This document shows positions 95 through 29,640 of a DNA stretch of 30,320 bases, piece after piece. The notes beneath the pieces are model-generated. The model was not told the origin of the DNA and ran no database searches. It saw nothing but the letters and a program-made list of their open reading frames with translations. Origin of the DNA: a virus. Within the stretch, counting starts at the first letter, position 1, and every line of letters begins with the position of its first letter. The position numbers were made by a program, and so were the translations under genes. The stretch lies in IMG/VR virus record IMGVR_UViG_3300024520_000351, positions 1 to 30,320 of that record, one strand, 5' to 3'.

Positions 95-146
95 GCGACT
101 GCGGTGCGGCGTGGAGGGACACGTAGTCGCAACAAACTATTGCGAC
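56..146. repeat. Four GTCGCA/TGCGAC motifs, the last two forming a hairpin
   Basis: GTCGCA occurs at 56-61 and 126-131 and its reverse complement TGCGAC at 94-99 and 141-146. The last pair extends to GTCGCAA (126-132) and TTGCGAC (140-146), a perfect 7-bp stem with a 7-base loop. Alternating repeats just upstream of the terminase genes could be a packaging (cos/pac) recognition site or transcriptional operators. The repeats are seen directly; their role is inference. Confidence 0.5.
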
Positions 147-240
147 ACCGATAGCTCAGATGGTAGAGCGCCCTGATCAAAACGGCTATAGTGGCGGTGA
201 TTAACGGGGGGCAGCGCAGGTTCGAGTCCTGCTTGGTAGC
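145..240 (+). tRNA. tRNA-like element with abnormal anticodon arm (possible pseudo-tRNA)
   Basis: The D arm is canonical: TA, then stem GCTC (154-157), loop with GG, stem GAGC (166-169). The T arm is canonical too: GCAGG (216-220), loop TTCGAGT, CCTGC (228-232). The acceptor halves 145-151 and 233-239 pair at only 5 of 7 positions, and no CCA is encoded. The stretch from 170 to 215 is about 24 bases too long for a class I tRNA. It can be read as a 24-base insertion (178-201) bounded by GAT repeats that splits an anticodon loop ending TTAACG, or as a class II-like tRNA with stem GCCCT/ACGGC and a loop containing TCA but no U33. Neither reading gives a fully normal tRNA, so it may be a decayed tRNA, an att-type remnant or a structured leader element. 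Confidence 0.4.
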
Positions 241-2228: not shown

Positions 2229-2852
2229 ATGGTGGCAAAGAAGAAAGCTGCTAAAAAAAAGCAGAAAAAGCATGACTGGATCTCGGGTACGGCGCTGGGC
2301 AAAAAGCTCGGCGTCACTCGTCAGGCGGTATCGAAAGCGGTTAAAGACGGGCGTTTTGTTAACGGCGTCCGTTATACACCAAAAGGCAGGCCGCAATTCC
2401 ATAGTGATATTGCGCCAAAAGAATGGGAAAGTAATCGAGTCCAGCCACAGGTCACCAATACAGGTAAAGCTGTTGGGGATGATGCGGGAGAGGCTCAACC
2501 GGCAGAGCTGCCGCTTTCAGCGACGCCGCAGAGTAGAGCGGGAGCATCGGTAGCGTACAACAACGCCAGGGCAGTGCGTGAAAACTTCGAAGCGAAAATG
2601 GCGAAGCTCAGATACGAGAAGGAAGCTGGTCTGTTGATACCAACCAGTTATGTCAAAACCCACAACTTCACGCGCAGTAAGATCCTCAAGGAAATGGTGC
2701 TGGGCATGCCTGACCGGGTAGCCTCTGCGATCGCTGCAAAGCTCGGTAAGAAAATCGATCCGGTGATCATCCACAACGCAATGGATGAGGAGTTGAGAAA
2801 CGTACTCGAAGAGGTTGCAAACCAGCATGCAGCTAACATCCCAGCAGGATGA
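2229..2852 (+). CDS. Terminase small subunit (Nu1-like)
   Basis: At 207 aa this is about the size of lambda-type small terminases. A lysine-rich leader (residues 1-15) is followed by a helix-turn-helix (about residues 17-50, ALGKKLGVTRQAVSKAVKDG) ending in a wing-like PKGRPQF segment, as in Nu1-type DNA recognition domains. The C-terminal half (about 110-207) is helical and would mediate oligomerisation and contact with the large subunit. The protein should bind the packaging site and recruit the ATPase. The gene directly precedes and overlaps the large terminase. The ribosome binding site is weak (ACGTGACCC before the ATG), so expression may depend on coupling to the upstream gene. Confidence 0.8.
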   Translation: MVAKKKAAKKKQKKHDWISGTALGKKLGVTRQAVSKAVKDGRFVNGVRYTPKGRPQFHSDIAPKEWESNRVQPQVTNTGKAVGDDAGEAQPAELPLSATPQSRAGASVAYNNARAVRENFEAKMAKLRYEKEAGLLIPTSYVKTHNFTRSKILKEMVLGMPDRVASAIAAKLGKKIDPVIIHNAMDEELRNVLEEVANQHAANIPAG

Positions 2853-4761
2853 GTGCCTTGATCACGACTGGCACGGACTGCTCCCAGAAAAGCGGCTGGA
2901 CGTGTCAGAGTGGGCTGACAAACACCGAAAACTAAGCGATCGGGAATCACCGGAGCCCGGTCGGTGGCGCACATCCCGGGTTCCATACCTGAAGGAACCG
3001 ATGGATTGCCTGAGTTCAAGTAGTCCAATACAGGAAGTCGTCCTGATGTTTGGGGCACAACTCGGGAAAACAGAGACCGGGAACAACTGGACTGGGTACA
3101 ACATTGATCACTCACCGGGATCCATGCTGGCGGTTCAACCCACCGTCGAGATAGGCAAGCGGTTTAGTAAGCAGCGCCTCGCACCAATGATCTCCGCAAC
3201 GCCTAGGTTGTCGGAAAAGATAGCTGATAGCCGATCGCGTGACAGCGGGAACACAACACTCAGTAAAGAATTCCCCGGTGGTATGTTGATCATCACCGGT
3301 GCAAACAGTGCCGCGGGATTGCGATCGATGCCGATCAAGTACCTGTTTGGTGATGAGATCGATGCCTATCCAGAGGACTGCGACGGGGAAGGTGAACCGT
3401 GTGATCTAGCCAAAGCACGGACTCGTAACTTCGCCAGGAAGAAAATACTATGGACATCCACCCCCACATTTGCCAACCGATCGCGCATAGAGGGCAAGTA
3501 TTTAGAAGGTGATCAGCGCCAATACCACGTACCGTGCCCGCACTGTGAGGAAAAAAACACGTTCAAATTTAGAAACCTGTGCTGTAACGACAAGGATCCA
3601 AGCACGGTGTACTACCTATGCGAGGGGTGCGGGAAGGAAATCGAAGAGCACCACAAGACGTGGATGCTGGAAAACGGTGATTGGATAGCCACTGCGCCTG
3701 GTAACGGGGGTGGAAAAATAGCATCGTTCCACCTGACATCGCTATACAGTCCGCTCGGCTGGTTCAGCTGGGTCGAAATCATGGAGGAGTGGTTCAAAGC
3801 GTATAAGAAACCAGACAAGCTGCGGGTATTCACAAACACCATACTGGCAGAAACGTGGAAGGAAAAAGGGGAGGCGCCTGACTGGAAGAAACTGTATGAC
3901 CGGCGCGAAACCTATGAGATCAACACCATACCGGATCAAAAGATCCTGTTTTTAACTGCCGGCGTCGATGTTCAAAAAGACAGAATCGAGGTGGAGGTTT
4001 TAGGGTGGTCTCGACACAAGGAAAGCTGGTCGATCGATTACCGAGTGTTTCCAAACAATGAAGATGGCACCTATGCCTGGCAGGAGCTGGACTCAATGCT
4101 CACAGAGGAGTGGGTGCATCCGAGCGGAATGGGAATCGGCATAAGCCGGCTTGGTCTCGACACCAGCTACGACACACAAACCTGTTATGGTTGGGCAAGA
4201 ACTCACCCCCTGACAAAAGTACTTGCGCTCAAGGGTAGCGATACCTCCAGCGTTTTGATTGGTCACCCCAAAGCGATGGACGTAACGATCGACGGTAAAA
4301 CCGTCACCCGCGGCATAAAGCTGTGGAGTGCCGGCGTATCGGTGGCGAAAGGTGAGATATACGGGTGGCTCAACCAAGAGGCACCGACAGAGGAAAGCGG
4401 AAATCCATACCCCACTGGGTTTTGTCACATACCGCAGTACGATGAAGAGTACTTTAAACAGCTGTGTGCGGAGCAGATCGTGGTACGCATCGTAAAAGGG
4501 TACCGGCGATACGAGTGGGAAAAAACCAGAGAGCGAAACGAAACACTGGATACTCGTGTGTATGCACGGATTGCAGCTCACTCATTTGGTCTTGATCGGT
4601 TCAAAGATGACCGCTGGAACCAGATGGAAGATGATCTCGGCGTGACAAACGCACCAAAAAAGAGTATAAAACCGAAATCGAAAGCAAAAACCAAAGAAGT
4701 TATCAAGGAAAAGCATGGTGTTAAATTCCGTCGCGGTAACTTTTTGAACAAGCGCAGGTAA
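2827..4761 (+). CDS. Terminase large subunit (lambda gpA family)
   Basis: This is the packaging ATPase and nuclease, 644 aa from the ATG at 2827 and close to lambda gpA in length. Visible features in order: an ATP-binding motif GAQLGKTE (76-83) in the position used by gpA proteins; a Walker B-like LFGDEID (173-179); a zinc-ribbon-like pair CPHC (237-240) and CEGC (265-268); then the C-terminal nuclease region starting near FLTAGVDVQKDRIEVEV, with a basic tail. An in-frame TTG exists at 2815, but the AGAGG at 2810-2814 suits the ATG better. It overlaps the small subunit gene by 26 bases, typical of coupled terminase pairs. gpA-type terminases usually cut cohesive ends, which suggests a cos phage. 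Confidence 0.93.
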   Translation: MQLTSQQDECLDHDWHGLLPEKRLDVSEWADKHRKLSDRESPEPGRWRTSRVPYLKEPMDCLSSSSPIQEVVLMFGAQLGKTETGNNWTGYNIDHSPGSMLAVQPTVEIGKRFSKQRLAPMISATPRLSEKIADSRSRDSGNTTLSKEFPGGMLIITGANSAAGLRSMPIKYLFGDEIDAYPEDCDGEGEPCDLAKARTRNFARKKILWTSTPTFANRSRIEGKYLEGDQRQYHVPCPHCEEKNTFKFRNLCCNDKDPSTVYYLCEGCGKEIEEHHKTWMLENGDWIATAPGNGGGKIASFHLTSLYSPLGWFSWVEIMEEWFKAYKKPDKLRVFTNTILAETWKEKGEAPDWKKLYDRRETYEINTIPDQKILFLTAGVDVQKDRIEVEVLGWSRHKESWSIDYRVFPNNEDGTYAWQELDSMLTEEWVHPSGMGIGISRLGLDTSYDTQTCYGWARTHPLTKVLALKGSDTSSVLIGHPKAMDVTIDGKTVTRGIKLWSAGVSVAKGEIYGWLNQEAPTEESGNPYPTGFCHIPQYDEEYFKQLCAEQIVVRIVKGYRRYEWEKTRERNETLDTRVYARIAAHSFGLDRFKDDRWNQMEDDLGVTNAPKKSIKPKSKAKTKEVIKEKHGVKFRRGNFLNKRR

Positions 4762-26694: not shown

Positions 26695-26928
26695 ATGTCA
26701 AACAACGCAATACATGCGGCAGAACAGCAAATCAGCGAGCTGCAAGCCATGGCAAAAGAAGCGGGAGTGACCATAAAGGCCGCTTGTGCAGAGGCAAAAA
26801 TACCAGAATCCACACTGTGGAACTGGGTAAAGAAGCCACCAACAACCCTCGTCAAGTTCAACCAGATAAAAGAGGCAATCGTCATCGTTCAAGCCAGACA
26901 GGGAACAAAAACAGATGCAGCTTCGTGA
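26695..26928 (+). CDS. Small helix-turn-helix protein, Cro-like regulator candidate
   Basis: The 77-aa product starts at the ATG at 26695, 7 bases after CGGAG; an in-frame GTG at 26659 has no such signal. Residues about 22-45 (GVTIKAACAEAKIPESTLWNWVKK) fit a helix-turn-helix: the first helix includes AACAEAKI and the recognition helix includes PESTLWNWV. The size and position beside a divergent promoter with repeated motifs suggest a Cro-type repressor of the early genes. It overlaps the helicase gene by 14 bases. Confidence 0.75.
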   Translation: MSNNAIHAAEQQISELQAMAKEAGVTIKAACAEAKIPESTLWNWVKKPPTTLVKFNQIKEAIVIVQARQGTKTDAAS

Positions 26929-28387
26929 TTTTCAGCAGGAAGGTGCAGCAAACATAAGAGCAGCATACGCACAAAAAGTCAGATCGGTTCTATGGGTTTT
27001 ACCCACTGGTGGGGGCAAGACCTACACCTTCACCTACATCACAAAATCAGCAGCGAGCAAGGGAAACAACGTCGGGATAATTGTCCATCGGCAGGAGCTG
27101 CTCATGCAGGCCAGTATGAGCCTCGCCTCGATGGGGGTGGAGCACGGCATCATAGCACCCGCAAAGGTAGCCAAAGCCATCCAACTACGCCAGATGGAGG
27201 AGCTGGGGGTGAATATGATCGACCAATCCTCACGGGTGCAGGTCGCCAGCGTTCAAGCACTGTCAAGACCAACACGGCTGGGAAAATACGCGCACCTTTT
27301 CAAACTGCTCATCGTCGATGAAGCGCACCACTCAACAGCAGGGCAGTGGCGGAAAACCATCGAGGCATGCCACCACGCTCGTGTGCTGGGGGTGACGGCA
27401 ACACCAATACGGGCAGATGGGCAGGGGCTCGGTACCCACTGCGGTGGATTGTTTGACCAGATGATACTCGGGCCATCGATAAGGCGGTTGATCGATAACG
27501 GATACCTCTGCCAACCACTGGTTTATGCGCCACCAATGAAAGTGGATCTCAGCGGAATCCGCAAAGGGAAGGGAGACTACAACAAAAAACAGATGGCAGA
27601 TGAGATGGATAAACCAACCATCACCGGTGATGCCGTCGACCACTACAGCAGACTATGCCCAAACAAACCAGCTATCGCGTTTTGTGCCAGCATCGAGCAT
27701 GCAGAGCACGTAGCGCAGCAATTCAGGTCGAGAGGATACAAAGCAGCGTCTGTATCAGGCGACACGCCAGATGAGATCAGGCGAAACAATATAAACGGAT
27801 TAAGCAACGGATCCGTCGAAGTACTCACCAGCTGCGACATTGTCAGCGAGGGAACCGACATACCGGTGGTGGAAGCAGCGATACTCCTGCGGCCAACCAT
27901 GTCAACAGGGCTATACCTGCAGCAGGTAGGGAGATCGCTCAGGCCGGTACCGGGTAAAGAGAACGCGATCATCCTCGATCATGTCGGGAATTGCCTGGAG
28001 CACGGGCTACCGGATGAAGAAAGAGAGTGGACCCTGGACGGCAGGATTAAACGCTCTGGAGGCAACACAGACGGTGGATCACTAAGCGTCCGACAGTGCC
28101 CCAAGTGTTTTGCAGCGCACGTACCAAGCCCAATATGCCCGGTTTGCAAACACGTATACCCAATCCAAACCAGAGAGATCGAAGAGGTGGAGGGTGAGCT
28201 GCAGCAGGTAGATGCCCATGCGCTGGAGATGCAAAAGCGCCAAGCAAGGAGTCAGGTCGCGGTCACCAACACAAGAGAAGAGCTGGAAAAAATAGCTGAA
28301 GAGCGAGGGTACAAAAAAGGGTGGGTCGATAAAATGATCGCCGTCAAAGTTAAACAAGGTCGGATGACAGAGGAGGAGGCAGCGTGA
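26915..28387 (+). CDS. DEAH-box superfamily 2 helicase
   Basis: The 490-aa protein has the SF2 helicase motifs in order: N-terminal LRDFQQEGAANIR (Q-like), motif I LPTGGGKT (about 29-36), motif II VDEAHH (134-139), motif III GVTATPIRA, motif V around SEGTDIPVVEAAILLRPT and motif VI QQVGRSLRP. Near residues 395-425 is a CPKC...CPVC zinc-binding pair. It resembles phage and RecG/UvsW-like helicases involved in replication restart or branch migration. The first ATG at 26915 lies inside the HTH gene. It is the largest gene of the rightward early operon and probably works with RecE/RecT. Confidence 0.92.
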   Translation: MQLRDFQQEGAANIRAAYAQKVRSVLWVLPTGGGKTYTFTYITKSAASKGNNVGIIVHRQELLMQASMSLASMGVEHGIIAPAKVAKAIQLRQMEELGVNMIDQSSRVQVASVQALSRPTRLGKYAHLFKLLIVDEAHHSTAGQWRKTIEACHHARVLGVTATPIRADGQGLGTHCGGLFDQMILGPSIRRLIDNGYLCQPLVYAPPMKVDLSGIRKGKGDYNKKQMADEMDKPTITGDAVDHYSRLCPNKPAIAFCASIEHAEHVAQQFRSRGYKAASVSGDTPDEIRRNNINGLSNGSVEVLTSCDIVSEGTDIPVVEAAILLRPTMSTGLYLQQVGRSLRPVPGKENAIILDHVGNCLEHGLPDEEREWTLDGRIKRSGGNTDGGSLSVRQCPKCFAAHVPSPICPVCKHVYPIQTREIEEVEGELQQVDAHALEMQKRQARSQVAVTNTREELEKIAEERGYKKGWVDKMIAVKVKQGRMTEEEAA

Positions 28388-28671
28388 CGGATGATAAACC
28401 AACGATAATCAACGTTGGAACAATCGGTCATATCTCGCACGGAGTGCATCTCGGGATATTGAGATCCGCTGCCGCTGCCGCAATGGTGTCGCTTATAGAG
28501 CGCGAAGATCTGGTGAAAAGAAATGAAGAAATGGTGCTGGAAGTAAGGGATTACACCAGCGATGCAGATGGTTTGATTTTGGATGTTTTTGATCACGCAG
28601 ATTTAAACAAACCTGATGGCATAAAGAAGCGCCGCCATAAGCAGAAAGGGCGTAACCGTAGAGAATGGTAA
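28384..28671 (+). CDS. Small protein with EF-Tu-like but degenerate P-loop, 95 aa
   Basis: The start is GTG at 28384, overlapping the helicase stop (GTGA). Residues about 5-22 read KPTIINVGTIGHISHGVH, strikingly like the start of EF-Tu (NVGTIGHVDHGKT), but the P-loop Lys and Thr are replaced by Val and His, so GTP binding is not expected. A helix follows (LGILRSAAAAAMVSLIERED). The C-terminus (about 75-95) is very basic (KKRRHKQKGRNRREW). Function unknown. It might mimic or interfere with a translation GTPase or bind nucleic acid through its tail. Confidence 0.65.
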   Translation: MTDDKPTIINVGTIGHISHGVHLGILRSAAAAAMVSLIEREDLVKRNEEMVLEVRDYTSDADGLILDVFDHADLNKPDGIKKRRHKQKGRNRREW

Positions 28672-28693
28672 CCCATCCACAAGGCGAGAGACT

Positions 28694-29458
28694 ATGAGCA
28701 ACATTAAATCAGGAGCAGTAGAAGGCGCAACAATACCGGCTAGGGTTAAGACTCTGAAAGTCAGAGTAAAGGATAAGCACGCCAAGCAGCTGCGTGGGAT
28801 GGCTAATAGTGTAAATATGGTATTCAATTACTGTAATGAGCTGAGTTACCGCAATATCACCGAGCGGAAAAGATACCTGTCAGGCTACGATATTCAAAAA
28901 TACCTCACCGGCGCAAGCAAAATGCTTCCAATAGGCCGGGGCACCCTGGATCAGATCGCTGCTGAATACGCGATCAGAAGGAATAAGGTCAAAAGGTCAA
29001 AGCTGAACTGGCGCAAATCTGTAGGCACTCGCCGGTCACTGGGATGGATACCCTTCAAAAAGCGCACTGTAATGTACAGGAATGGCCAGATTTACCATAA
29101 CGGGATACTGTACTCAATCTGGGATAGCTATGGTTTATCACAATACGAGCTGCGTTCTGGCTCATTTAATGAGGATGCTCGGGGTAGGTGGTATCTCAAT
29201 ATAGTTGTTGAGGTTAAAGAGGAGAAATCTACGGGAAAAGAATCGGTAGGGATTGACCTGGGCTGCAAATCAACTGCAACAGATAGCAACGGTTATGTGG
29301 TCCAGGGCCGTGAGTTCCGCAAGCTGGAGGGCAAATTAGGCATCGCTCAACGCTCCAGGAATAAGAAACAGGTCAAGACCATACACGCAAAGATCAAAAA
29401 CCGCAGGGCTGACACCTTGCACAAATACAGTCGAAAACTCGTAGAGGGTAACCCGTAA
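28694..29458 (+). CDS. TnpB-like (IS605 OrfB family) protein truncated after RuvC-I
   Basis: The 254-aa product matches the N-terminal two thirds of TnpB/IS605 OrfB proteins, which are usually about 370-400 aa. The start (TLKVRVKDKHAKQLRGMANS, VNMVFNYCNELS) and the RGRWYLNIVVEVKEE strand lead into the RuvC-I motif GIDLGCKS, with catalytic Asp188. It continues to KIKNRRADTLHKYSRKLVE and stops. The RuvC-II Glu, the zinc finger and the RuvC-III Asp that normally follow are missing, so nuclease activity should be lost. The gene has its own AGGCGAGAG signal and overlaps the next start (TAATG). No tnpA and no IS-type terminal hairpins were seen. It may be a decayed element or a co-opted fragment. 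Confidence 0.8.
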   Translation: MSNIKSGAVEGATIPARVKTLKVRVKDKHAKQLRGMANSVNMVFNYCNELSYRNITERKRYLSGYDIQKYLTGASKMLPIGRGTLDQIAAEYAIRRNKVKRSKLNWRKSVGTRRSLGWIPFKKRTVMYRNGQIYHNGILYSIWDSYGLSQYELRSGSFNEDARGRWYLNIVVEVKEEKSTGKESVGIDLGCKSTATDSNGYVVQGREFRKLEGKLGIAQRSRNKKQVKTIHAKIKNRRADTLHKYSRKLVEGNP

Positions 29459-29640
29459 TGACACCGGAAATGAAAGACCTGTTAGAGAGACAAGGAAATA
29501 TCATCCACAACACATGCAATACCATTGGCTGCAAAGATTGCGGGCTGAAAAACGGGTTTGATGATAACTCTGGATGCGCCTCAACAGACCTGCATGAAAG
29601 GATAATGGATCTGGAAATGAAGGAATCCAACCATGAATAA
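29458..29640 (+). CDS. Small Cys-containing hypothetical protein, 60 aa
   Basis: The product begins MTPEMKDLLERQGNII and has cysteines at 20, 25, 28 and 40 (HNTCNTIGCKDCGLKNG, then SGCAS), which could form a zinc-binding site. It is acidic at the end. The start overlaps the TnpB-like stop as TAATG and the end overlaps the next gene by 8 bases. The family is not recognised. It is part of a run of small early genes. Confidence 0.6.
   Translation: MTPEMKDLLERQGNIIHNTCNTIGCKDCGLKNGFDDNSGCASTDLHERIMDLEMKESNHE

What the first reader, a model, noticed from the sequence alone, without database searches (positions are those of the whole stretch)
28694..29458. TnpB-like protein ending right after RuvC-I, kept in frame within a phage early operon
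The protein has the TnpB N-terminal region and the RuvC-I GIDLGCKS motif, then stops after the HKYSRKLVE helix, where RuvC-II, the zinc finger and RuvC-III should follow. The end is neatly coupled (TAATG) to the next gene. A non-nuclease TnpB fragment with intact RNA-binding parts could be a co-opted RNA-guided DNA-binding or regulatory protein; alternatively it is recent decay. The absence of tnpA and element ends favours either old fixation or a small cassette.
Basis: partly seen in the sequence, partly recalled or inferred. Interest (0 to 1): 0.65.

Follow-up and report, generated by a model that had tools for sequence, protein, structure and literature searches.

The report
Broken transposon gene in phage operon
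The gene is the front two thirds of a known kind of transposon enzyme (TnpB) that has lost its back third and the guide RNA encoded there, so it is most likely a recently broken remnant inside a phage genome rather than a new RNA-guided regulator.

Summary
ORF 28694-29458 (254 aa) is TnpB from its N-terminus through RuvC-I (D188) and the two RuvC helices after it; it then stops at the start codon of a conserved phage gene. It belongs to a widespread proteobacterial IS605-type TnpB family (closest relative 63% identical). Of 154 distinct relatives, 139 are intact (about 350 aa); none with enough downstream sequence lacks the C-half. The family's omega RNA overlaps the RuvC-III codons and runs past the stop codon (24 pairs, 16 with two-sided changes). 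It is found in held-out relatives (E 1e-8 to 1e-29) and nowhere in the window (best E 1.4). The lost segment therefore took RuvC-II, zinc finger, RuvC-III and guide RNA together; tnpA is absent too. The surviving part is undecayed (56 of 57 conserved columns), which fits recent truncation or retention; the codon test cannot separate them. Best reading: a recently 3'-truncated IS605/IS1341 remnant in a phage operon. Co-option as an RNA-guided repressor (TldR-like) is not supported in cis.

The parts
28694..29458 (+). truncated tnpB ORF, 254 aa: disordered 14-16 aa extension, WED-REC, RuvC-I with D188, first two RuvC helices; no RuvC-II, zinc finger or RuvC-III
29441..29457 (.). breakpoint zone where TnpB homology ends and the next gene's translation start begins
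   Evidence: DNA of ten relatives aligned by eye at this point; protein alignment
28654..28675 (+). left copy of an imperfect direct repeat AACCGTAGAG(AAT)GGTAACCC; right copy at 29436-29454
   Evidence: local alignment score 13, reached by 0.4% of random window pairs; chosen after seeing it
29436..29454 (+). right copy of the imperfect direct repeat, AACTCGTAGAGGGTAACCC
28384..28671 (+). 95-aa phage ORF just upstream, no known relatives
29458..29640 (+). 60-aa conserved phage gene (NTIGCKDC motif), intact, starts at the tnpB stop codon
26915..28387 (+). SF2 helicase of the same gene run

Best explanation
The gene is the 5' remnant of an IS605/IS1341-type insertion sequence that entered a phage gene run. 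A deletion or illegitimate recombination at about 29441-29457 joined tnpB codon ~250 to the start of the next phage gene. This removed RuvC-II, the zinc finger, RuvC-III and the omega RNA that overlaps them. If translated, the product is an inactive WED-REC fragment carried as a passenger. Shown: the truncation, the absence of guide RNA and tnpA from this record, intact full-length relatives, the conserved N-half. Inferred: order of events, recency, lack of function.
For: 139 of 154 distinct relatives intact and none other lacking the C-half where downstream sequence is held. Omega RNA with 16 two-sided-changing pairs overlaps RuvC-III codons in relatives, recovered in held-out relatives but not in the window. 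No C-half or tnpA in the record. 56 of 57 conserved N-half columns kept, including D188 that has no use without the rest of RuvC. RuvC stub predicted with lower confidence (pLDDT 75-78) than WED-REC (89-95); match to TnpB 8h1j falls from TM 0.70 for a full-length relative to 0.53. Frameshifted or interrupted copies occur elsewhere in the family, e.g. L016, L048, L055, L130, L110.
Against: The frame is neatly kept with no stop over about 237 TnpB codons, and omega=1 on the window branch is rejected (LRT about 12.6), though most of that branch presumably predates truncation. No empty or intact version of the same phage locus is available.
Confidence: 0.8

Rival explanations
1. Domesticated nuclease-dead TnpB: an RNA-guided DNA binder or repressor (TldR-like) kept by the phage.
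For: N-half conserved and in frame; neutral evolution over the branch rejected; retains WED, REC and RuvC helices that contact omega RNA in ISDra2 TnpB (PMC10097598); phage-encoded TldRs are known (PMC13418256).
Against: No omega RNA in the window by motif, Rfam or a purpose-built covariance model; its template was deleted with the C-half. The RuvC fold is incomplete, whereas TldRs keep guide RNA and DNA binding. No second example of the truncated form.
Confidence: 0.05
2. Trans-acting decoy: the fragment binds omega RNAs made by intact TnpBs of the host or rival elements and so inhibits them.
For: Retained RNA-contacting parts; full-length relatives are common and multi-copy in Gammaproteobacteria.
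Against: No direct evidence; the RNA is held between WED and RuvC in ISDra2 and most of RuvC is missing; no other truncated copy found.
Confidence: 0.05
3. Assembly chimera or larger rearrangement: the C-half exists in the real phage genome beyond the contig end, or the junction is an assembly error.
For: The record is a linear fragment ending 860 nt after the gene; insertion sequences promote misassembly.
Against: The downstream gene is a conserved phage gene at its natural start, followed by tightly packed small ORFs of similar codon use. Nothing suggests a second mobile element at the junction.
Confidence: 0.1

Closest known systems
IS605/IS1341-type TnpB with the alternative RuvC-II glutamate (Ealt), e.g. 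Sansalvadorimonas L122, Salinisphaera L108, Shewanella L107/L109, phage HFM1 L003
   Same: 59-64% identical over residues 17-254 to the nearest ones; same WED-REC and RuvC-I; D188 kept
   Different: They are about 350 aa with Ealt, zinc finger, RuvC-III and an overlapping 3' omega RNA; the window copy has none of these
TldR, TnpB-like nuclease-dead repressors (PMC13418256)
   Same: TnpB-derived, phage-borne, cannot be a nuclease
   Different: TldRs have inactivating RuvC changes but keep guide RNA and DNA binding and a linked gene such as fliC; here RuvC is cut off, catalytic D188 is kept and no guide RNA is present
ISDra2 TnpB (PDB 8h1j, 8exa)
   Same: WED-REC fold and the retained part of RuvC
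   Different: Cut at about ISDra2 residue 272, before Glu278, the TNB zinc finger and Asp361

Membership tests
TnpB family (by descent) | sequence homology to TnpB/OrfB over the N-terminal and RuvC-I regions | tested here: met
Functional TnpB nuclease | complete RuvC triad (D, canonical or alternative E, D) and zinc finger | tested here: not met
   only the first D present; C-half absent from record
Functional TnpB nuclease | 3' omega RNA overlapping or following the gene | tested here: not met
   covariance model negative in window, positive in held-out relatives
IS605/IS1341 mobile element (intact) | right end with terminal hairpin and GGATGTCAA | tested here: not met
   motif hits at chance level; model R1 negative
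TldR | RuvC nuclease inactivated while guide RNA is retained | tested here: not met
   nuclease lost by truncation; guide RNA absent from the record
TldR | stable linkage to a non-transposon partner gene across relatives | tested here: inconclusive
   no relatives of the neighbouring genes with a tnpB beside them, but no close phage relatives held
TldR | RNA-guided DNA binding and repression | not testable with these tools
   needs ChIP-seq and RIP-seq

The most novel reading that the evidence does not exclude
The phage keeps a stand-alone TnpB WED-REC-helix fragment that binds omega RNA made by intact TnpBs of the same family, blocking their cleavage or using their guides in trans: a natural anti-OMEGA decoy.
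Probability: 0.05. Interest if true: 0.7.

Novelty: new member of a known kind. Interest (0 to 1): 0.17.

Why it matters
Because the guide RNA of this TnpB family is encoded by the same DNA as the protein's C-terminus, a 3' truncation cannot by itself give a guide-carrying dead TnpB. That is a simple filter for separating real TldR-like domestications from broken copies in genome scans. A retained decoy fragment would be a new counter-measure against OMEGA nucleases, but nothing here requires it.

Tried and rejected
(1) Relatives of the flanking genes, to find an empty or intact locus: none for the 95-aa upstream and 102-aa downstream proteins; helicase relatives are 28-50% identical and lack this gene order. 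(2) C-half or tnpA elsewhere in the record: none. (3) Guide RNA in the window: Rfam, right-end motif and a purpose-built covariance model, all negative. (4) Codon use or GC as an age marker: uninformative, relatives have similar composition. (5) dN/dS: synonymous sites near saturation (branch dS about 1.6-3), so it cannot date the truncation. (6) The flanking imperfect direct repeat is suggestive but was picked post hoc; relatives also carry GGTAAC a few codons further on, so the breakpoint mechanism stays open.

Full report
What is there. The window is a whole IMG/VR virus record of 30,320 nt, classed linear. It holds packaging, tail and lysis genes, with a GpA-type large terminase at 2815-4761, and at the right end a run of genes including an SF2 helicase (26915-28387). 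In that run the ORF 28694-29458 encodes 254 residues that match TnpB models from their N-terminus to about 65-73% of their length and then stop. Its TAA overlaps the ATG of a 60-aa gene. That gene has relatives in three other viral contigs and in Bdellovibrio phages with about the same start, so the downstream gene is intact and begins where TnpB homology ends (breakpoint 29441-29457).

The family. Scans with the protein and the family alignment gave viral and bacterial loci up to 63% identical, the bacterial ones mostly Gammaproteobacteria and Burkholderiales and often multi-copy. The scan patterns came from the N-half, so they do not favour full-length copies. Of 154 distinct proteins, 139 are intact. 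Seven run off a contig. Eight have the C-half present but in another frame, after a stop, or near a contig end. None with at least 450 nt of downstream sequence lacks it. Some loci have a tnpA, divergent in L122; a tnpA match lies in 14 of 103 viral and 27 of 80 genomic loci. The family has Gly where ISDra2 TnpB has the RuvC-II Glu (alignment) and has a nearly invariant Glu six residues before the first zinc-finger Cys. That is the 'alternative E' arrangement described for some TnpBs and Fanzors (PMC10711439). The full-length relatives therefore look like nucleases of that type (inference).

The guide RNA. The last 110 nt up to a conserved ATGTCA end in relatives align well and give a consensus of 24 pairs. 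Sixteen of these keep pairing through two-sided changes, and the fold includes a pairing between the RuvC-III codons and the 3' end. This is what an omega RNA overlapping the coding sequence should look like; TnpB is known to make omega RNA from its own mRNA (PMC10278001). A covariance model of it finds held-out relatives at E 1e-8 to 1e-29, including frameshifted genes (L016, L048, L055, L130), and nothing in the window even with filters off (best E 1.4). The deletion in the window took the protein C-half and the guide RNA together.

State of the remnant. Of 57 N-half columns conserved in at least 90% of relatives, the window keeps 56; relatives at similar distance from their nearest neighbour miss 5.2 on average. 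There are no stops or frameshifts. In a two-ratio codon model (15 sequences, 236 codons) omega on the window branch is 0.12 against 0.06 elsewhere (LRT about 1.3, not significant), and omega=1 is rejected (LRT about 12.6). Synonymous change is near saturation and most of the branch presumably predates truncation, so this shows only that long neutral drift did not occur. Conservation of D188, of no use without the rest of RuvC, points to recency rather than new function (inference).

Structure. AlphaFold2 gives a confident WED-REC (mostly pLDDT 89-95) and a weaker RuvC-I region (75-78) for the truncated protein. The match to ISDra2 TnpB 8h1j falls from TM 0.70 for a full-length relative to 0.53. 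In ISDra2 TnpB the omega RNA is held by WED and RuvC, and the guide-target duplex lies between REC and RuvC (PMC10097598). The remnant keeps some RNA-contacting parts but not the lobe that closes the complex.

Junction. An imperfect repeat AAC(T)CGTAGAG(AAT)GGTAACCC stands just before the gene and at its end (score reached by 0.4% of random pairs). Recombination between such sites is one possible route, but the comparison was chosen after seeing it and relatives carry GGTAAC nearby.

Verdict. A recently truncated IS605/IS1341 remnant is the most economical account (0.8). A TldR-like co-option fails the defining tests that could be run. A trans-acting decoy role is possible but has no evidence. 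The direct test by close relatives could not be made.

Noticed in passing
window 145-240 (+): Weak tRNA-like match in Rfam (RF00005, 32.7 bits, E 0.0028) that ARAGORN does not call as a tRNA.
   Followed up: partly
window 2815-4761: Large terminase about 50% identical to those of Wolbachia phage WO, the best matches among 807 phage records; the phage itself has no close relative in the collections.
   Followed up: no
window 29458-29640; L187, L188, L189: Small conserved gene with a C-x2-C core (NTIGCKDC) shared with Bdellovibrio phages MAC3UK and phi1402; function unknown.
   Followed up: partly
L003 (Acinetobacter phage HFM1) 171-6062: A full-length TnpB of the same family lies 3.3 kb downstream of a helicase related to the window's, so this element family has entered a similar phage gene neighbourhood more than once.
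   Followed up: partly
L118, L124, L127, L134, L138, L140, L142, L165 (Lampropedia hyalina): Many similar copies in one genome, showing that this Ealt TnpB element family is or recently was mobile.
   Followed up: no
L110 3001-3894 (Shewanella sairae): Another copy interrupted a few codons beyond the window's breakpoint, here by unrelated sequence running to the contig end.
   Followed up: no
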